A stretch of 21,776 nt of DNA from a virus: positions 1 to 21,776 of IMG/VR virus record IMGVR_UViG_3300017967_000260. One strand, given 5' to 3'. The position numbers and the translations under genes are program-made. Shown here piece by piece: positions 11,240-21,518 of the stretch. The notes under the pieces are model-generated. The model did no database searches. It saw only the letters and a program-made list of their open reading frames with translations, and was not told the DNA's origin. Numbering within the stretch: the stretch's first letter is position 1; each line of letters begins with the position of its first letter.

Positions 11240-11755
11240 ATGTCTGAAATTACCGCAAACAAAAACTTTCTTTCACCACTAGGCTTTAGGTTTGTTCTTC
11301 AACGAGCACCTAATCTAGAATTCTTTTGTCAAGAATTTACATTACCGGAAATATCAATTGAAGATGTTACTCAAGAGTCACCAAATCTAAGGTTGTATTA
11401 TCCTGGTACAAAAATGGAATATGCACCTCTCAATGTAGAATTTATTGTTGATGAAGATTTATCAAATTATAAAGAAATACAAGAGTGGTTATTTGGTCTA
11501 GGTTCTCCACAAAAAACTCAACAATTTCAAAATCTAAGACAACAGGAGGTTATAGGTGAACCTGGTGGTATTAGGTCTGATGGTACACTTATTGTTTTAA
11601 CTTCAAATCATAATGCAAACATAGAAATTGTTTTTAGAAACTTATTTCCTATCTCACTTTCTCCTTTAAATTTCACAACTACATCATCTGATGTGGACTA
11701 TATAAAAGCAACTGCTACATTTAGATATAACGCATTTACCTTTGTGGGCTCTTGA
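11240..11755 (+). CDS. gp19-family tail-tube-like protein (171 aa)
   Basis: The sequence fits the T4 gp19 tail-tube fold. Signs are the opening NFLSPLGFRFVLQRAPNLEF, then FTLPEISIEDV, the central APLNVEFIVDEDLSNYKEIQ with EWLFGLGSP, and the closing DVDYIKATATFRYNAFTF strand. Length is close to gp19 of T4 (163 aa). The product could be the tube subunit itself or a related tube-initiator or terminator protein; in T4-like cyanophages a tail-completion gene (gp3) is often found at this position after gp23. It has a late promoter, and its TGA stop lies inside the -35 box of the uvsY promoter. Confidence 0.75.
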   Translation: MSEITANKNFLSPLGFRFVLQRAPNLEFFCQEFTLPEISIEDVTQESPNLRLYYPGTKMEYAPLNVEFIVDEDLSNYKEIQEWLFGLGSPQKTQQFQNLRQQEVIGEPGGIRSDGTLIVLTSNHNANIEIVFRNLFPISLSPLNFTTTSSDVDYIKATATFRYNAFTFVGS

Positions 11756-11780
11756 CAAACGAATCACACTATGATATAAT
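11752..11780 (+). promoter_or_regulatory. Consensus sigma70 promoter for uvsY-uvsW
   Basis: TTGACA at 11752-11757 and TATAAT at 11775-11780 are separated by exactly 17 bases, with an extended -10 (TGATATAATGG). The expected start site is near 11787, giving a ~30-base leader to uvsY. The stop codon of the upstream gene is embedded in the -35 box. This is the boundary between late structural genes and early/middle-type genes. Confidence 0.92.
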
Positions 11781-11815
11781 GGCTATGTTGCCTTTAAGAT
11801 ATAATAGGATACTAT

Positions 11816-12485: not shown

Positions 12486-13927
12486 GTGATGTACTTAGAA
12501 TAATAAAATTAAATGAAGTAAATATGAGAGTGGATGCTGAACCAAGCATCCGTATGGAATTAAGTGATAAACTTACATTCATGGTACCAGGTGCCAAGTT
12601 CATGCCAGCTTATCGTAATCGATTATGGGATGGTAAGATACGATTGTTAAACGCAATGACTGGTGAGCTCTATGTTGGTTTGTTACCAGAAGTATTAGAG
12701 TTTGCAAAGACCCGAGGTTATGAATGTATTGTCGATGAAAGTTTATCAAAACAAGAAGACTTTACACTGAATAAGGCCGAAGAGTTTGTAAAAGATTTAT
12801 CATTACCTTTTGAACCAAGAGATTATCAGTACAACAGTTTTGTTCATGCGGTACAAAACAACCGAGCACTGGTGTTATCTCCAACGGGTAGTGGTAAATC
12901 TCTTATAATCTATTTGTTGGCTAGATACTATGCGAAGAAAACACTTATCATTGTACCAACAACTGGATTGGTATCACAATTAAAAAAGGATTTTGTTACT
13001 TATGGACTGAATGATAAATATATACATACAGTAACAGCAGGTAGTGAGAAGGGCTCAGAAAAACCTATTGTTATTAGTACATGGCAATCTATTTACAAAC
13101 AACCGAAGAAATACTTTTTACAGTATGATGTTGTGATTGGTGATGAATGTCACCAGTTCAAATCAAAATCTCTTACATCAATTATGACAAAGTTGCTTAC
13201 TTGTAAGCATCGTTTCGGTTTTACAGGTACACTTGATGGAACACAGACACACAAACTCGTACTACAAGGCTTATTTGGTGAGATCAAGCAATTTAAGAAA
13301 ACGGCTGAACTGATTGAAGATAAACATTTAGCACCATTTAGAATTAAATGCCTTGTTTTAAAACACAAAGAAGAGGAAAGAAAAAATGTTGTGGGTAGAA
13401 CTTATCAAGATGAAATGGACTACTTGGTCTCACACGACAGGCGAAATATGTTTATCACTAACCTTGTTCTTAGCCTTTCTGGGAATAGTCTCCTTCTTTT
13501 CCAGTATGTAGAGAAACACGGTAAAATACTATATGATTTAATCAAACAAACTGCGCCAGATAGAGATGTTTATTTTTTACACGGTGGTGTAAGTGCAGAG
13601 GAAAGAGAGTATGTACGAAATGAAATCGAGAAACGAAATAACGCTATTATCATTGCTAGCTACGGTGTTTTTAGTACCGGTATTAATGCTCCTAATCTTC
13701 ATAACATTATCTTTGGTAGTCCTAGTAAGTCTCGTATTCGCAATCTTCAGTCAATTGGTCGAGTTCTTCGTGTCAGTAAAGGAAAAGATAAGGCTACACT
13801 CTACGACATAGCTGATGATTGTAAATATAAATCAAAAACAAATTTCACTCTTAACCATTTTATTGAAAGAATAAGAATTTATAAAGACGAAAAGTTTGAA
13901 TACAAAGTATACAACATCGATTTATAG
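12482..13927 (+). CDS. uvsW: DNA/RNA helicase UvsW
   Basis: This is a superfamily 2 helicase that, in T4, unwinds R-loops and branched DNA and helps switch replication from origin-dependent to recombination-dependent. Motifs in order are Walker A PTGSGKS at 134-140, DECH box at 221-224, FTGT (motif III) at 247-250, the motif V region SYGVFSTGIN at 393-402, and QSIGRVLR (motif VI) at 423-430. The N-terminal ~110 residues, with FMPAYRNRLWDGKIRLL near 40-56, match the UvsW N-terminal domain. The length of 481 is close to T4 UvsW (about 500). Translation is coupled to the upstream gene, and the next promoter begins right after its stop. Confidence 0.95.
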   Translation: MSDVLRIIKLNEVNMRVDAEPSIRMELSDKLTFMVPGAKFMPAYRNRLWDGKIRLLNAMTGELYVGLLPEVLEFAKTRGYECIVDESLSKQEDFTLNKAEEFVKDLSLPFEPRDYQYNSFVHAVQNNRALVLSPTGSGKSLIIYLLARYYAKKTLIIVPTTGLVSQLKKDFVTYGLNDKYIHTVTAGSEKGSEKPIVISTWQSIYKQPKKYFLQYDVVIGDECHQFKSKSLTSIMTKLLTCKHRFGFTGTLDGTQTHKLVLQGLFGEIKQFKKTAELIEDKHLAPFRIKCLVLKHKEEERKNVVGRTYQDEMDYLVSHDRRNMFITNLVLSLSGNSLLLFQYVEKHGKILYDLIKQTAPDRDVYFLHGGVSAEEREYVRNEIEKRNNAIIIASYGVFSTGINAPNLHNIIFGSPSKSRIRNLQSIGRVLRVSKGKDKATLYDIADDCKYKSKTNFTLNHFIERIRIYKDEKFEYKVYNIDL

Positions 13928-13956
13928 TTGACAAATGGTTACAAATGTGATATAAT
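13928..13956 (+). promoter_or_regulatory. Consensus sigma70 promoter, near-leaderless
   Basis: TTGACA at 13928-13933 and TATAAT at 13951-13956 are separated by 17 bases, with an extended -10 (TGATATAATGG). The -35 box begins on the base after the uvsW stop. The ATG of the next gene is only 11 bases beyond the -10 box, so the transcript should begin about 4-6 bases before the start codon, with no ribosome site. It should express the Sm-like gene, gp55 and the following genes through gp47/gp46. Confidence 0.92.
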
Positions 13957-13967
13957 GGTACCCACTT

Positions 13968-15014: not shown

Positions 15015-15208
15015 AAGGATACATTCATTTATTTGTGAATGATCATTTTGTGAATCATTACCGCGACGGCATTGATATGAATGTGGAAGATTTAGTGATA
15101 AATGAAATGGTAAAAATAAAAGGTATTGATTACTTGGTGAAAAAAGTGCAACCTCTCGTTGTTGGACCAAGAGCTATGCCAGTAACTTATGTGTATGTTG
15201 AAGAATGA
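15011..15208 (+). CDS. Small hypothetical protein upstream of gp47 (65 aa)
   Basis: I chose GTG at 15011, which overlaps the upstream TGA (GTGA). A TTG at 15005 is a less likely alternative that adds two residues. The protein is beta-rich: KGYIHLFVNDHFV, then VEDLVINEMVKIKGIDYLVK, then MPVTYVYVEE at the end. It looks like a compact small-barrel fold, but no family is recognised. Its stop overlaps the gp47 start by 4 bases (ATGA), so coupling with gp47 translation is likely. Confidence 0.65.
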   Translation: MKGYIHLFVNDHFVNHYRDGIDMNVEDLVINEMVKIKGIDYLVKKVQPLVVGPRAMPVTYVYVEE

Positions 15209-16278
15209 AAGTAGCGCTTATAACCGATACCCATTGGGGTGCAAGAAACGATAGTCAAGTTTTTCTTGATATGATGGAAAGATTCTATAATAATGTATTC
15301 TTTCCTGAACTTGAAAAACAAAACATAAAAACAATCATTCATCTTGGTGATATTGTTGACCGAAGAAAGATGATTAGTTATGTTACACTGAATCGTTTTC
15401 GTAATGTATTTGTCAACCGATGCGTGACAGATGGTATTGACTTACATGTGCTCGTCGGAAATCACGATATTCCTTATCGTAATAGTAATGAAATTAATGC
15501 GATGAGTGAGTTGTTTGGTTCTTATGCAGAAGATGGTGTATCGTTTTATTCAGAACCAACTGATGTTTCTTTCGGCAATTTGAAGCTTACGATGATGCCA
15601 TGGATTCACAACATGAACTATGCAGATTGTATGGAACATATTGCAAACACCGATGCTCGTGTATTGTTTGGTCATCTTGACTTGAGTGGTTTTGTGATGC
15701 ATCAAGGTGTAGTACAACATCATGGTATGGATACCAAGCCATTCGAAAAGTTTGAGTTGGTGTGTTCAGGACATTTTCACCACAAGTCGCGTAAGAATAA
15801 CATTCAGTATCTTGGTAATCCATTTGAACTGACTTGGGGGGACTTTAACGACGCTCGTGGTTTTCATTTGTTTGATACGGAAACGCTTGAGTTACAGTTT
15901 ATTCAAAATCCATACCGTATGTTCTATAAGGTATTCTATGATGATACCGATAAAACGATGGATGAAGTGGTAGAAAAAGATTTTACAAACTACGAAAACA
16001 CTTATGTAAAAGTGATTGTACAGAACAAATCAAACCCATATTGGTTTGATATGATGTTGGACAAACTATATAAATCTAATCCAGCAAATGTGAGTATCGT
16101 AGATGATAACAAAAATCTTGGTGAAATGGATGATGAAGAAATCGTGAATGAAGCTGAAGATACACTGACAATTATGCGTAAGTATGTGGGTAGTTCCAAT
16201 CTAAATGTAGATGCGATACAATTAAATACATTACTCACTTCACTTTATAATGAATCACAAGCACTGGATATAGAATGA
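15205..16278 (+). CDS. gp47: Recombination endonuclease subunit gp47 (Mre11-like)
   Basis: This is the nuclease subunit of the T4 gp46/gp47 complex, the phage counterpart of Mre11-Rad50/SbcCD, which resects DNA ends for recombination-dependent replication. The metallophosphoesterase motifs are all present: TDTHWG (Asp8, His10), HLGDIVDRR (Asp49), GNHD (Asn86-His87-Asp88), GHLDLSG (His157) and SGHFHH (His190, His192). The length of 357 residues is close to T4 gp47 (339). It starts with an ATGA overlap. Its last nine residues, NESQALDIE, recur at the end of the next small gene, which separates it from gp46. Confidence 0.95.
   Translation: MKVALITDTHWGARNDSQVFLDMMERFYNNVFFPELEKQNIKTIIHLGDIVDRRKMISYVTLNRFRNVFVNRCVTDGIDLHVLVGNHDIPYRNSNEINAMSELFGSYAEDGVSFYSEPTDVSFGNLKLTMMPWIHNMNYADCMEHIANTDARVLFGHLDLSGFVMHQGVVQHHGMDTKPFEKFELVCSGHFHHKSRKNNIQYLGNPFELTWGDFNDARGFHLFDTETLELQFIQNPYRMFYKVFYDDTDKTMDEVVEKDFTNYENTYVKVIVQNKSNPYWFDMMLDKLYKSNPANVSIVDDNKNLGEMDDEEIVNEAEDTLTIMRKYVGSSNLNVDAIQLNTLLTSLYNESQALDIE
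16249..16278 (+). repeat. Duplicated gp47 3' end, copy 1 (copy 2 at 16563-16592)
   Basis: The last ten codons of gp47 (NESQALDIE plus stop) recur as the last ten codons of the next gene, with 27 of 30 bases identical. The three differences are synonymous (CAA/CAG and CTG/TTA). In both copies the terminal ATGA provides the start codon of the following gene. Confidence 0.85.
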
Positions 16279-16592
16279 TGGAAAAATTATCAGTCATTTT
16301 TGAATGGATCGATTTTGAAAAACAAGTTTGCCAAATTCGTTTTATGAATGAAAGTAAAAAGCAAATTCCTTTGGACATAGGACTTGAAAAGGCTGAATCA
16401 ATATTAAACAATGAAATGATGAAAGATTCTTATGCGAGAGGATTTTCTAAACTGAAAGTTAAAGTTCCAAACTCAGAAAATATGATGATTCGTTCTGATC
16501 TTTGTTTTACTGGTACTAGACAACACTCTATCTGGAATTCAGGAATATTTTTGGCTTTATTGAATGAATCACAGGCATTAGATATAGAATGA
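16275..16592 (+). CDS. Small inserted ORF between gp47 and gp46 with gp47-like C-terminus (105 aa)
   Basis: The ATG overlaps the gp47 stop by 4 bases (a second ATG is at 16278). The first ~90 residues match no family I know: a strand/helix start (EKLSVIFEWIDFEKQVCQIR), a helical middle (LEKAESILNNEMMKDSYARG), then KLKVKVPNSENMM and DLCFTGTRQHSIWNSG. The end, NESQALDIE, is identical to the gp47 C-terminus and nearly identical in DNA. The ORF thus looks like an insertion that ends by rebuilding the gp47-gp46 junction, which preserves the overlapping ATGA for gp46. Codon use looks like the neighbours. A role with the gp46/gp47 nuclease is possible from position only. Confidence 0.75.
   Translation: MMEKLSVIFEWIDFEKQVCQIRFMNESKKQIPLDIGLEKAESILNNEMMKDSYARGFSKLKVKVPNSENMMIRSDLCFTGTRQHSIWNSGIFLALLNESQALDIE
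16563..16592 (+). repeat. Duplicated gp47 3' end, copy 2
   Basis: This is the second copy of the NESQALDIE-stop segment, closing the 105-aa ORF immediately before gp46. Its three synonymous differences from copy 1 show that it is not a very recent exact copy, or that it came from a related phage. Confidence 0.85.
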
Positions 16593-18298
16593 TTCACTTT
16601 GAAAATATAAGATTTAGAAATTTCCTATCAACAGGAGATGTTTGGACGCAGATTGATTTATCTCGTAGTCCAACCACACTTGTTCTAGGAGAAAATGGTT
16701 CCGGTAAATCAACAATGCTTGACGCCTTATGTTTCGCGTTGTTCGGTAAACCTTTTCGTAAAATCAACAAACCACAGTTAGCTAATTCAATCAACGAAAA
16801 GAATTGTTTGGTTGAAGTAAACTTTCGTATTGGTTCTAACTCCTATCGTGTTTTGCGTGGCATCAAACCAGCAAAGTTTGAAGTCTACTATAACGATGTT
16901 TTGTTAGATCAAACAGCTGCGGTAAAAGATTATCAAGAACACCTTGAAAAGAATATTCTGAAACTGAATTATACTTCTTTTACACAAGTGGTTATTCTCG
17001 GTTCTTCTACATTTATTCCTTTCATGCAGCTGTCAGCACAGGCTCGTCGTGAGGTGATTGAAGACCTTCTTGATATTAAGATCTTTTCTGTTATGAATGT
17101 GTTACTTAAAACACGCATACAAGAAAATAAAGAATTGCTGAACGATTTGAAATATCAACTTCAGATGGCTCAAGAAAAACGAGCACTCCAACAGAAACAT
17201 ATTAAAGAACTTCGTAATCAAAATGAAGAACGAGTGAATGAAATTAAAACTGAGATTGGGAAAAGTAGAACTCAATTAGGTCTTTTGGTTCTAGAAAAGA
17301 CTGGTATTCTAAAAAGAATTGAAGAGAATGAGAAAACACAACGGGATAAGTATAAAGGTGTACTCAAGAAGTTTTCTGATTTAGAAAAATACCAAGGACA
17401 AATACAGACAAAACAAAACAAGTTAATGAAAGATAGAGATTTTTATCTTGAGAATGCCGATTGTCTGTCATGTGGCCAATCTTTACCAACAGATTTCAGG
17501 GACGATAAACTCAAAGTACTGGAAGAAAACATTTCAGATTACTCTGTAAATCTTTCTAAACTAGAAACTGAGTTGGAAAAAACTTCCGTACTGAAAGATG
17601 AACTAAAGGTATTAGAAGAAGAATACTCAACTTTGGTTGAAAAGAAGTTTAGTTGTGATAAAGATATTGACAACCACCATAGTTACATACGAAAACTTGA
17701 AAAACAGTTATCATCTGTAAGTAATGTTGATATGACCACAACACTGGAAGAACTCAAGGTAACAGAACGAAAACTTATTGAAGTAGAGAAACAACGAGAG
17801 GAAGCAGTAAAACAAAGAGAACTATATACAGTAGCAGCCGAACTGCTAAAAGATAAGGGCATCAAAACACAGATTGTCAAACAGTATGTTCCAGTGATGA
17901 ACAAACTTATCAATAAGTATTTGGCTAAGATGGAGTTCTTTGTAAACTTTGAGCTTGACGAAAACTTTAACGAAGTGATTAAGTCTCGTCACCGTGATGT
18001 GTTTAGTTATGCATCATTCAGTGAAGGAGAAAAGGCTAGGCTTGATCTGGCACTGTTACTTACTTGGCGTAGTATTGCGAAGATGAAGAATAGTTCTCAT
18101 ACGAATCTGTTAATACTGGACGAAGTATTTGATGGTTCACTTGATAATGTTGGTATTGAAAGTTTAATGGAAATATTGAATGAAACACAAGACACCAATA
18201 TCTTTATCATCTCCCACAAAGGAGAGTCACTACAAGATAAGATGCGTTCAATCATTCGTTTTGAGAAACATAAAAACTTTTCTAGGATGGTAGCATGA
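16589..18298 (+). CDS. gp46: Recombination endonuclease subunit gp46 (Rad50-like)
   Basis: This is the SMC/Rad50-type ATPase partner of gp47. Features in order are an N-terminal FRNFLSTG followed by Walker A GENGSGKST (34-42), the Q-loop region near TQVVILGSSTF, a first coiled coil rich in Glu/Lys/Gln, the zinc-hook CLSCGQ (Cys292, Cys295), a second coiled coil, the ABC signature FSEGEKARL (477-485), and Walker B LLILDEVFDGSLD (Asp511, Glu512) with the D-loop. The length of 569 is close to T4 gp46 (560). It starts with an ATGA overlap on the inserted ORF and ends with one on the methyltransferase-like gene. Confidence 0.96.
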   Translation: MIHFENIRFRNFLSTGDVWTQIDLSRSPTTLVLGENGSGKSTMLDALCFALFGKPFRKINKPQLANSINEKNCLVEVNFRIGSNSYRVLRGIKPAKFEVYYNDVLLDQTAAVKDYQEHLEKNILKLNYTSFTQVVILGSSTFIPFMQLSAQARREVIEDLLDIKIFSVMNVLLKTRIQENKELLNDLKYQLQMAQEKRALQQKHIKELRNQNEERVNEIKTEIGKSRTQLGLLVLEKTGILKRIEENEKTQRDKYKGVLKKFSDLEKYQGQIQTKQNKLMKDRDFYLENADCLSCGQSLPTDFRDDKLKVLEENISDYSVNLSKLETELEKTSVLKDELKVLEEEYSTLVEKKFSCDKDIDNHHSYIRKLEKQLSSVSNVDMTTTLEELKVTERKLIEVEKQREEAVKQRELYTVAAELLKDKGIKTQIVKQYVPVMNKLINKYLAKMEFFVNFELDENFNEVIKSRHRDVFSYASFSEGEKARLDLALLLTWRSIAKMKNSSHTNLLILDEVFDGSLDNVGIESLMEILNETQDTNIFIISHKGESLQDKMRSIIRFEKHKNFSRMVA

Positions 18299-18927
18299 AT
18301 CCAAATTTAATGTTTGGTCTTTCCGTTATGAATAGAATCAAACAAGAAATAGAAAAGACAGGAGATAATAAATTATTAGAAAGTTTTATTCAGAGTTATA
18401 GTCCTAATCAAATAAGTTCTAAACTATGGTTAGTGAATGAACTTAAAAAACATACGCCTTTAGGAACTTATAATGTAGAAGTGGTCGGTAGTTGGTTTGG
18501 TTATCCTTTAGTTTTTTTCATACGCGAGTATATGTCCAACGCTCAAAGAATTGTTCTATACGATATAGATGATAAGGCCTGTGAAATATGTGATAGATAT
18601 AAGACTTACTTTCACGATGAAAATATTGTTATAAAAAATATGGATTATTGGAAAGATTTTTCGGAAAGAAAGGATGTGGATGTGGTTATAAACACCTCGT
18701 CTGAACATATGAAAGGATCACATTCTATGAATTTTGTTTTATATGATGACCCTATTCATGCGATACAATCAAATAATATGGACATTGATGAACATATAAA
18801 CCTATGCCATTCCGAGGACGAGTTAGCAGAAAAACACGACTTTGAAGAAATACTATATAAAGGTACCAAAAGAATGAACAATGGCAGTTTAGATCAATAC
18901 AGATATATGGTCATAGGCAAAATATGA
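18295..18927 (+). CDS. Class I SAM-dependent methyltransferase-like protein (210 aa)
   Basis: The Rossmann-fold methyltransferase layout is visible. Motif I is VEVVGSWFGYPL at 61-72 (Gly-rich loop after strand 1). The acidic end of strand 2 is IVLYDIDDKA with Asp90/Asp92 (adenosine ribose binding). The strand 4 motif is DVDVVINTSSEHM at 127-139. The NTSSEHM segment replaces the DPPY/NPPF of DNA amino-methyltransferases, so base methylation is not indicated. Similar proteins occur in marine T4-like phages without a known substrate. The target could be a small molecule, protein or RNA. It is coupled to gp46 by an ATGA overlap and followed by a 61-aa gene and an oxygenase gene. Confidence 0.7.
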   Translation: MNPNLMFGLSVMNRIKQEIEKTGDNKLLESFIQSYSPNQISSKLWLVNELKKHTPLGTYNVEVVGSWFGYPLVFFIREYMSNAQRIVLYDIDDKACEICDRYKTYFHDENIVIKNMDYWKDFSERKDVDVVINTSSEHMKGSHSMNFVLYDDPIHAIQSNNMDIDEHINLCHSEDELAEKHDFEEILYKGTKRMNNGSLDQYRYMVIGKI

Positions 18928-19109
18928 AAAAATATGGTATTAAAGTAAGAGTTATGGATGGAGAATACCGTTGGATGTTAGATCATTCCGAAGTTCTGAC
19001 TGATGTTGGACCAATGTTATTTGAAACAAAACAAGAGGCCATTGACTTTGCAGAAAAGATGCAATGGACATTATATGAAGTGGACCTATATCCTTACAAG
19101 GAGTTTTGA
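18924..19109 (+). CDS. Small hypothetical protein (61 aa)
   Basis: ATG at 18924 overlaps the upstream TGA by 4 bases. The sequence has two strand-like parts (KYGIKVRVMDGEYRWML at the start and WTLYEVDLYPYKEF at the end) flanking a helix (ETKQEAIDFAEKM). This compact alpha/beta layout is similar to many small phage accessory proteins. No family is recognised. It ends one base into the start of the oxygenase gene (TGATG). Confidence 0.65.
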   Translation: MKKYGIKVRVMDGEYRWMLDHSEVLTDVGPMLFETKQEAIDFAEKMQWTLYEVDLYPYKEF

Positions 19110-19741
19110 TGGAGAATACAAAACGAAATAGAGTAAGAGGTAAAGGACCTAAAAGAAATCAACTGGTTATTTTTAAAAAATTAGGAGAAGTTTCTGATGA
19201 AACTTACGAATATCTTAACAATTTTTTGAATGAAAATACTCATAGTGATATCGGCACAGATGCGTATTCAATAACCAGAAATGTGGATTATGAAAAAGTT
19301 TTTAATGTCGGTCAAAAATATAGACAAGTAGTTTTACAGAAAAACAAAACGAGCAATGACGACACAATCGATGAACATGATTACGATAAATGGATAATTG
19401 GTAGTGAATTAATACAAGGAGAAATTAAACGATTTTTCAAAAAGATTTATAGATTTAGATTGAGTGAGATGCAACCAAAACACTCTCTGAATTGGCACAT
19501 AGATACCGATACAAGTGTTATGTGCAGGGCTCAGATATGTTTAAACGAGAATGATAGTGATTTCTTATTCAAAGATAGAAAAGGAATATATAAGTTAGGA
19601 ATGAAACCAAAAGAGTTTTGGTTTATAAACACTGGGTGGCCACACGCTGTTGAAAATTATACTGGTGTGAGAAGAGTTGCAATAATGAGTTTCGATTACA
19701 GTGATTTGAGAAAAGATTTGCAAGAGGAATTAAAATTATGA
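19109..19741 (+). CDS. 2-oxoglutarate/Fe(II)-dependent oxygenase-like protein (210 aa)
   Basis: I chose ATG at 19109 because AAGGAG at 19098-19103 lies 5 bases upstream; a TTG one codon earlier is less likely. The double-stranded beta-helix iron site is visible as HID (His130, Asp132) in LNWHIDTDTSVMCRAQICLN and His179 in NTGWPHAVEN. Arg188/Arg189 in TGVRRVAIMSFDY are placed to bind the 2-oxoglutarate carboxylate. The pattern is closest to the aspartyl/asparaginyl beta-hydroxylase branch. The N-terminal ~25 residues are basic (NTKRNRVRGKGPKRN). The substrate is unknown; protein or nucleic acid is possible. It is followed at once by peptide deformylase. Confidence 0.75.
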   Translation: MENTKRNRVRGKGPKRNQLVIFKKLGEVSDETYEYLNNFLNENTHSDIGTDAYSITRNVDYEKVFNVGQKYRQVVLQKNKTSNDDTIDEHDYDKWIIGSELIQGEIKRFFKKIYRFRLSEMQPKHSLNWHIDTDTSVMCRAQICLNENDSDFLFKDRKGIYKLGMKPKEFWFINTGWPHAVENYTGVRRVAIMSFDYSDLRKDLQEELKL

Positions 19742-20271
19742 TGTTAAAAGAGTTAGTGCCATCAACAGATCCAATACTCAAACAGAGTACAGTTTCTTTT
19801 GATTTTGAAAACCCACCAATGGATCCTATGGATCTAGCTGAAGAAATGCGTTATAATATGATTACGCATCGTGGTATTGGTCTTGCTGCACCACAGATAG
19901 GTTATAATTATTCTGTATTTGCAGTAGGTAACCCTGATGTGAAAGAGAGTATTCTTGTGTTCTTTAATCCAAGAATCGTACATTACTCTGACGATTTAGT
20001 TTTAATGGAAGAAGGTTGTCTGTCATTTCCAGGAATGTCTTTTAAAATTAAAAGACCTTCTGATATAAGAATGCGTTTTACTGGAGCCACTGGTATTACA
20101 GAGACTATGAGGTTTAACGGTATGACCGCAAGAGTGGTACAACATGAGTACGACCACCTACACGGAATTACTTTTGATACGAAAGTAAATAAGTTTCATT
20201 TAGAAAAATCTAAGAGGAGAAAAACACTATATAACCGTAAGAAGCGAAAAAATCGCTTGACAAGTGCGTGA
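19738..20271 (+). CDS. def: Peptide deformylase
   Basis: This enzyme removes the N-formyl group from newly made proteins. All three family motifs are present: GIGLAAPQIG at 46-55, EGCLS with metal-ligand Cys94, and HEYDH at 136-140 (the HExxH metal site with catalytic Glu137). The length of 177 is normal. The C-terminal ~20 residues are very basic (KSKRRKTLYNRKKRKNR), which may help ribosome contact; this is inference. Virus-encoded deformylases are known from marine phages, where they are thought to keep phage or host proteins processed late in infection. The start overlaps the oxygenase stop, and the gene's 3' end contains the promoter for the tRNA. Confidence 0.95.
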   Translation: MMLKELVPSTDPILKQSTVSFDFENPPMDPMDLAEEMRYNMITHRGIGLAAPQIGYNYSVFAVGNPDVKESILVFFNPRIVHYSDDLVLMEEGCLSFPGMSFKIKRPSDIRMRFTGATGITETMRFNGMTARVVQHEYDHLHGITFDTKVNKFHLEKSKRRKTLYNRKKRKNRLTSA

Positions 20272-20285
20272 GAATATGATATAAT
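20257..20285 (+). promoter_or_regulatory. Consensus sigma70 promoter for tRNA-Gly
   Basis: TTGACA at 20257-20262 and TATAAT at 20280-20285 are separated by 17 bases, with an extended -10 (TGATATAATGG). The -35 box is within the last codons of the deformylase gene. The tRNA begins 13 bases after the -10 box, so transcription should start about 6 bases before the mature 5' end. Confidence 0.93.
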
Positions 20286-20297
20286 GGATGGACAAAC

Positions 20298-20387: not shown

Positions 20388-21518
20388 GTGATATTAAATA
20401 ATGAAGATGCTGTTTACGCAGCCAATATTTTTATAGATTTCTTCTCAGATTTAAATCGTGTTGATGAATATCTAAGAAATGTGAAATCGGAAAGAATTTT
20501 AGAAAAATATAACCATCACGATAATTTTCTTGGTGGCCCGCAGGATGAAATGTTTCAAGACTTCTCTATTTCTCCTGAAAATATGAACTTTAAAGTCTAT
20601 GAGGTTTCATCTAAAGACTTCATTACAAAATTACAAATTGTTTCTTCTCACATTGTAGAGGCCTCTATTCCAGGCAAAGGATTGCTTTTATGTGTGAAAG
20701 AAACAAATTCGGATAGTATTGTCGGATTTATTCGACTGGGTTCTCCTACTATCAATTCAAAACCAAGGAATGATTTTCTTGGTCAACCCTTGAGAACTAA
20801 AGATAAGGATGTGATGAAAAGATTTAATGACTCCGCTATTATGGGGTTCATTATTGTACCTACACAACCCTTTGGTTTTAATTATCTTGGCGGTAAATTA
20901 TTGGCAGGTCTTTGTTGTTCGCATGAAGTCAGAGATATGTTGAATAAAAAATATGGAGGACCTTTTTGTTTATTTGAAACCACTTCTCTGTATGGTTCAA
21001 CAAAGGCCGCGTCACAGTATGATGGTATGAAACCCTTTCTTCGTTATAAGGGTCTTACCGATTCTAAGTTTACGCCTCTTTTAAATGATAATCATTTTAG
21101 AGATTTGAGTGATTGGTTCACAGAAAGGAATAATGGTGAGCGTCTTGTTCCTGTTAAGGCCTCTTCTAAGAAATTAAAAACTCAAACTAAAATGATTTCG
21201 ATTATTAAAAAATCTTTGAAGGACAACAAAGAGGTACTTGACAAATTCAACCAGGCATGTTATAATGGCCTCTCAATTACGGAACAGAAGCGAACTTATT
21301 TCTGTGATTACGGTTATGAAAATGTAAAAGAGTATTTGAATTTAGAAACCGACGAATTGAGAAAGAAAGATAACTACGATAGATACAGTATGGAAAATAT
21401 TGTTGAATGGTGGAGAAAAAAGGCCTCTAAACGATTTGAATCTCTAAAGACAGACGGCCGATTAAGAACAGAATTAGAAGTTTGGAATAAAAATAATGAC
21501 ATTGATATCATACGATGA
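20388..21518 (+). CDS. DUF4338/DruA-like protein of unknown activity (376 aa)
   Basis: I chose GTG at 20388, which has GAGGTG 4 bases upstream; a TTG at 20376 would add four residues. The central part holds a run resembling the acyltransferase-like DUF4338/DruA/Mom group: VVEA-type strand, LLLCVKETNSDSIVGFIRLG, then GFIIVPTQPFGFNYLGGK with LLAGLCCSHE (about 153-180), and PFCLFETTSLYGSTKAA with FLRYKG (about 192-222). The C-terminal third is helical and basic. DUF4338 occurs in anti-phage systems (Druantia) and in phages; Mu Mom modifies DNA. Activity here is unproven. The gene contains a perfect promoter at 21238. It overlaps the next gene by 23 bases. Confidence 0.65.
   Translation: MILNNEDAVYAANIFIDFFSDLNRVDEYLRNVKSERILEKYNHHDNFLGGPQDEMFQDFSISPENMNFKVYEVSSKDFITKLQIVSSHIVEASIPGKGLLLCVKETNSDSIVGFIRLGSPTINSKPRNDFLGQPLRTKDKDVMKRFNDSAIMGFIIVPTQPFGFNYLGGKLLAGLCCSHEVRDMLNKKYGGPFCLFETTSLYGSTKAASQYDGMKPFLRYKGLTDSKFTPLLNDNHFRDLSDWFTERNNGERLVPVKASSKKLKTQTKMISIIKKSLKDNKEVLDKFNQACYNGLSITEQKRTYFCDYGYENVKEYLNLETDELRKKDNYDRYSMENIVEWWRKKASKRFESLKTDGRLRTELEVWNKNNDIDIIR
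21238..21266 (+). promoter_or_regulatory. Consensus sigma70 promoter inside a coding sequence
   Basis: TTGACA at 21238-21243 and TATAAT at 21261-21266 are separated by 17 bases, with an extended -10 (TGTTATAATGG). It lies wholly inside the preceding gene, where it encodes LDKFNQACYNG. Transcription should start near 21273, about 220 bases upstream of the YunG-like gene, which is the likely target. Confidence 0.8.

What the first reader, a model, noticed from the sequence alone, without database searches (positions are those of the whole stretch)
16249..16592. Small ORF inserted between gp47 and gp46 that ends with a copy of the gp47 3' end
The last ten codons of gp47 and of the 105-aa ORF differ at only three synonymous positions, encode the same NESQALDIE, and both end in the ATGA that starts the next gene. 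The simplest reading is that a gene landed precisely at the gp47/gp46 junction and carried, or copied, the gp47 end. That keeps the coupled start of gp46 intact. This is a tidy route for gaining a gene inside a tightly coupled replication operon, and the first ~90 residues match nothing I recognise.
Basis: partly seen in the sequence, partly recalled or inferred. Interest (0 to 1): 0.65.

Follow-up and report, generated by a model that had tools for sequence, protein, structure and literature searches.

The report
ORFan gene inserted at gp47/gp46 joint
In a T4-like phage, a small gene with no known relatives sits between two recombination genes at a spot where such phages often gain extra genes, and unusually the last 30 letters of the upstream gene appear on both sides of it, a scar of how it got in.

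Summary
gp47 (15205-16278) and the 105-aa ORF (16275-16592) end in the same 30 nt, differing at three nucleotides in two codons, both synonymous; the ORF overlaps gp47 and gp46 by ATGA. A second assembly has the identical junction. The ORF has no relatives in Pfam, PHROGs, NCBIfam, PDB, phage records, IMG/VR or GTDB contigs.

Among 140 distinct gp47/gp46 joints, 102 are direct and 38 hold inserts from about 20 unrelated families; T4 itself has 46.1 and 46.2 there. So gain of a gene here is ordinary. What is rare is the flank duplication: only this virus duplicates the gp47 end, and two relatives (L005, L120) duplicate the gp46 start.

The copy next to gp46 (tail 2) matches the sister's native gp47 end best, so the DNA probably entered inside gp47, about 30 nt before its stop, with a substitute end (tail 1) restoring gp47. 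This resembles fungal mitochondrial mobile-ORF gene hybrids, but the ORF shows no endonuclease, and local copying is not excluded. Coupling is not the tail's doing: gp46 starts NTGAT in 127 of 140 joints and supplies that stop itself.

The function of the ORF is unknown. New variant of a known kind, modest interest.

The parts
15205..16278 (+). gp47 (SbcD/Mre11-like recombination nuclease subunit), complete
   Evidence: ORF; phrog_100, E 4e-107
16249..16278 (+). tail 1: 3' end of gp47, probably the substitute end
   Evidence: 3 of 30 nt differ from tail 2 and 5 of 30 from the sister L005, against 34 of 600 just upstream
16275..16278 (+). ATGA overlap, gp47 stop and ORF start
   Evidence: sequence
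16275..16592 (+). inserted 105-aa ORF with no detectable relatives
   Evidence: no match; only the same virus; best PHROG E 0.11; coding-like composition
16555..16593 (+). second copy of the gp47 3' end (tail 2; core 16563-16592), fused in frame to the ORF C terminus; probably the displaced native gp47 end
   Evidence: 39 nt, 87% to 16243-16279; 2 of 30 differences from the native L005 gp47 end
16589..16592 (+). ATGA overlap, ORF stop and gp46 start; the stop lies in gp46's own first codons ATGAT
   Evidence: sequence; NTGAT start in 127 of 140 joints
16589..18298 (+). gp46 (SbcC/Rad50-like subunit), complete
   Evidence: ORF; phrog_77, E 9e-171

Best explanation
An accessory gene with no known relatives has been gained at the gp47/gp46 joint, a recurrent site of small-gene gain in T4-like phages, by a recombination event that was not flush with the gene boundary. 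Shown: the gp47 end is present on both sides of the insert; relatives have no insert or unrelated inserts here; the flanking genes are recombinant mosaics. Inferred: the break or crossover lay about 30 nt upstream of the gp47 stop, so that the resident gp47 end stayed attached to gp46 and became the C terminus of the new ORF, while the 5' side of the incoming DNA supplied an equivalent gp47 end. Selection for intact gp47 would retain such an event. The ORF is expected to be translated by termination-reinitiation from gp47, and gp46 from the ORF. What the protein does is not known; the most likely class is a dispensable accessory or host-interaction gene, like other small inserts at this joint.
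For: Tail repeat beyond chance. Direct joints in 102 of 140 relatives and inserts in 38, of about 20 unrelated families; T4 46.1/46.2 and a phiM12 ORF at the same place. The two closest relatives carry another ORF here, without a gp47 tail copy. The junction block of the window (gp47 from about nt 480 to gp46 about nt 660) is 88-100% identical to L005, mostly above 90%, and flanked by blocks nearer L004, so homologous recombination exchanges this joint. Tail 2 differs from the L005 native gp47 end at 2 of 30 nt, tail 1 at 5 of 30, where the preceding 600 nt differ at 34 (Fisher p 0.03 for tail 1, 0.69 for tail 2). L005 and L120 show the mirror case: a copy of the gp46 start with ATG left of the insert and a gp46 start without ATG (ATC, ATT) on its right. 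Coding-like composition of the ORF.
Against: The native-versus-substitute assignment of the tails rests on three to five nucleotide differences and an uncorrected p of 0.03. No donor with the ORF elsewhere, and no empty site with the exact NESQALDIE tail, was found. Divergence of the two tails (3 of 30) does not differ from background (Fisher p 0.41), so a local duplication that later diverged fits too. Nothing shows that the ORF is expressed.
Confidence: 0.72

Rival explanations
1. Local copying: the insertion itself duplicated about 30-38 nt of gp47 (staggered break with fill-in, or template switching with microhomology during recombination-dependent replication), and the copies later diverged at three synonymous sites. 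No foreign gp47 end was brought in.
For: Both tails encode the same residues and differ no more than background (Fisher p 0.41); such duplication needs no donor.
Against: At all three sites tail 2, not tail 1, agrees with the sister L005, and tail 1 shares CTG with L004; copies made in place recently should be identical.
Confidence: 0.35
2. The ORF and its tail are a mobile cassette in the strict sense, one that moves by itself or with a homing endonuclease and carries a replacement gene end, as fungal mitochondrial mobile ORFs do.
For: Same layout (gene, substitute end, ORF, displaced native end) as described in PMC3630166; an ORF with an HNH-like motif lies in the mirror-image case L120; phiM12 has mobE beside gp47.
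Against: The ORF has no endonuclease similarity in any library and occurs in one virus only; no second location.
Confidence: 0.12
3. The tail is kept for function: the ORF mimics the gp47 C terminus and binds gp46.
For: The gp47 C terminus has invariant L343, L347, Y348 and E350 among eight relatives, and the ORF ends in a near copy.
Against: The copy is ALLNESQALDIE: the invariant Tyr is Leu and the preceding gp47 region is absent; the identical peptide is explained by recent origin.
Confidence: 0.03

Closest known systems
T4 genes 46.1 and 46.2, and other small ORFs between gp47 and gp46 (e.g. Sinorhizobium phage phiM12 SmphiM12_045)
   Same: Same position and orientation, small accessory ORFs, 4-nt overlaps with gp47 and gp46
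   Different: No similarity to this ORF was seen; no copy of the gp47 end in phiM12 and none visible in T4
Fungal mitochondrial mobile-ORF gene hybrids (Allomyces atp6, Glomus atp6/atp9/cox2/nad3; PMC3630166)
   Same: Resident gene completed by a substitute end; native end displaced downstream of the inserted ORF; native end nearer to close relatives
   Different: There the ORF is a homing endonuclease and the ends diverge strongly; here no endonuclease and 3 nt of divergence over 30
Phage morons / accessory-gene insertion by illegitimate recombination (general knowledge)
   Same: A gene present in one genome between two genes that are adjacent in relatives
   Different: Sits inside a translationally coupled operon with a duplicated gene end

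Membership tests
Accessory ORF inserted at the gp47/gp46 joint of T4-like phages | Lies between gp47 and gp46, which are adjacent in relatives | tested here: met
   102 of 140 joints direct, 38 with inserts
Accessory ORF inserted at the gp47/gp46 joint of T4-like phages | Open frame with coding-like composition, coupled to its neighbours | tested here: met
   Codon usage; ATGA overlaps on both sides
Mobile-ORF gene hybrid (fungal mitochondrial type) | Gene end present on both sides of the ORF | tested here: met
Mobile-ORF gene hybrid (fungal mitochondrial type) | Displaced end nearer to the relative's native end than the substitute end | tested here: inconclusive
   2 against 5 differences in 30 nt, Fisher p 0.69 and 0.03 against background
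Mobile-ORF gene hybrid (fungal mitochondrial type) | ORF encodes a homing endonuclease | tested here: not met
   No match in Pfam or NCBIfam; best PHROG E 0.11, an anti-repressor
Mobile-ORF gene hybrid (fungal mitochondrial type) | Mobility shown | not testable with these tools
   Needs mixed infections

The most novel reading that the evidence does not exclude
Phages gain genes inside coupled operons by inserts that carry a replacement for the gene end they destroy, at 3' ends (this virus) and at 5' ends (L005, L120): a phage counterpart of the fungal mobile-ORF hybrids and a general route for landing off a gene boundary without loss of function.
Probability: 0.2. Interest if true: 0.6.

Novelty: new variant of a known kind. 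Interest (0 to 1): 0.36.

Why it matters
How new genes enter tightly packed, coupled phage operons without breaking essential neighbours is usually unseen, because the scars erode. Here, and in mirror image in two relatives, the scar is still readable, and it suggests that insertions need not hit the gene boundary exactly so long as the lost gene end is restored. The gp47/gp46 joint, with about 20 unrelated kinds of insert, is a good place to study this.

Tried and rejected
Relatives of the ORF: none in phage records, IMG/VR beyond the same virus, GTDB contigs, Pfam, PHROGs, NCBIfam or PDB. ORF as a decayed copy of a larger part of gp47: no profile support. A third copy of the tail inside the ORF (MNESKKQIPLDIG): codon-shuffle p 0.12, dropped. 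Structure: the single-sequence AlphaFold2 model has pLDDT 42, so no fold search was run. GAGATATATARATA, shared by L005 and L120 just after the gp46-start copy and nowhere else in the 1.28 Mb of loci held then: a scan with the exact L120 version GGAGATATATAAATAC found it mostly at unrelated places, so it is not a general mark of endonuclease inserts. Head-copy score in L112 (p 0.03): dismissed on inspection.

Full report
What is there. The window is a 21,776-base virus record. gp47 (15205-16278), a 105-aa ORF (16275-16592) and gp46 (16589-18298) follow each other with ATGA overlaps. The last 30 nt of gp47 and of the ORF differ at three nucleotides in two codons, CAA/CAG and CTG/TTA, and encode the same NESQALDIE. 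The similarity extends to 39 nt with a 2-nt indel and is beyond chance. A separate IMG/VR contig from sample 3300018424 has the same junction, differing from the window at two positions in 6185, neither near it. The ORF body has codon usage like the neighbouring genes in its own frame and not in the others.

Is it an insertion. Yes, by comparison. Of 140 distinct gp47/gp46 joints gathered from IMG/VR and a few isolate phages, 102 are direct (49 of the 140 overlap by 4 nt) and 38 carry inserts. The inserts fall into about 20 unrelated families, among them 2OG-Fe(II) oxygenases, a pyrimidine-dimer glycosylase-like protein and an exoribonuclease-like protein. T4 has 46.1 and 46.2 there and phiM12 one ORF, with 4-nt overlaps to gp47 and gp46. 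The two closest relatives, L004 and L005, carry another ORF, MFIWTIGDAIF.... Gene gain at this joint is therefore common and known; the ORF of the window is one more case, with no relatives in any library searched.

What is unusual. Only the window virus has a copy of the gp47 end. Two others have a copy of the gp46 start. In L005 the gp47 end runs into ATGATTCACTTTGAAAAAATTCG, a copy of the gp46 start, then the insert, then gp46 whose ATG ATT has become ATC ATA. In L120 ATGATACAGTTTCATAGTATCCAATGGAAAA is followed by an ORF with an HNH-like motif (my reading of the sequence; no Pfam match, phrog_5104 of unknown function) and then gp46 with ATT in place of ATG. Statistical support is strong for the window (0 of 300 shuffles), moderate for L120 (p 0.003) and weak within L005 itself (p 0.03, not corrected for 38 tests), though L005 5033-5084 matches the window tail 2-gp46 joint at 91% over 54 nt.

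Which tail is native. Window and L005 are 88-98% identical over the last ~600 nt of gp47 and 90-100% over the first ~660 of gp46, while L004 is nearer on both outer sides, so this joint lies in a recombined block. The L005 gp47 end differs from tail 2 at 2 of 30 nt and from tail 1 at 5 of 30; the preceding 600 nt differ at 34 (Fisher p 0.69 and 0.03). Tail 2 also remains joined to gp46 as in an empty site. The simplest reading is that DNA entered about 30 nt inside gp47, the native end was displaced and now ends the ORF, and tail 1 is a substitute. The data are few, and local copying remains possible (tail divergence against background, p 0.41).

How it would work. gp46 starts NTGAT in 127 of 140 joints, so the stop for an upstream ORF in that frame lies in gp46's own first codons; the tail copy is not needed for coupling. 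What the duplication does preserve is gp47. Termination-reinitiation at both ATGA sites is inferred from the layout. The function of the ORF is not known.

Comparison. The layout resembles fungal mitochondrial gene hybrids in which a mobile endonuclease ORF brings a substitute gene end and displaces the native one (PMC3630166). The ORF here is not an endonuclease by any test made, so it is not filed as a member. [quoted passage not shown]

Verdict. A new variant of a known kind.

Noticed in passing
window 18295-18927 and 19109-19741: Two further ORFs (about 210 aa each) are present in the window and absent from L004 and L005 at the next joints (gp46/61-aa ORF and 61-aa ORF/peptide deformylase); the first is flanked only by ATGA on both sides, with no longer repeat.
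   Followed up: partly
window 11751-11782, 13927-13958, 20256-20287, 21237-21268: Four similar sites of the form TTGACA-like, spacer, TATAAT-like followed by GG, resembling host sigma-70 promoters; the last lies inside the 380-aa ORF.
   Followed up: no
L005 4001-5068: gp47 of L005 is a chimera: its first ~360 nt are only 38-75% identical to the window, the rest about 88-98%.
   Followed up: partly
L005 5315-5345: gp46 of L005 has ATC ATA where relatives have ATG ATT and no in-frame upstream start was seen; a start copy with ATG lies left of the insert. Unusual start, pseudogene or assembly error not told apart.
   Followed up: partly
L120 4078-5966: 1889-nt insert with two related 2OG-oxygenase-like ORFs in tandem, a copy of the gp46 start, an ORF with an HNH-like motif, and gp46 with ATT for ATG behind GGAGG.
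   Followed up: partly
L005 5089 and L120 5349: GAGATATATAGATA / GAGATATATAAATA directly after the gp46-start copy in both; found nowhere else in the 1.28 Mb of loci then held. TATAAATA resembles a T4 late promoter.
   Followed up: partly
L003 4228 (window 16255): A third contig, 98% identical to the window, ends inside tail 1, as assemblies may do where a population is mixed for an insert.
   Followed up: no
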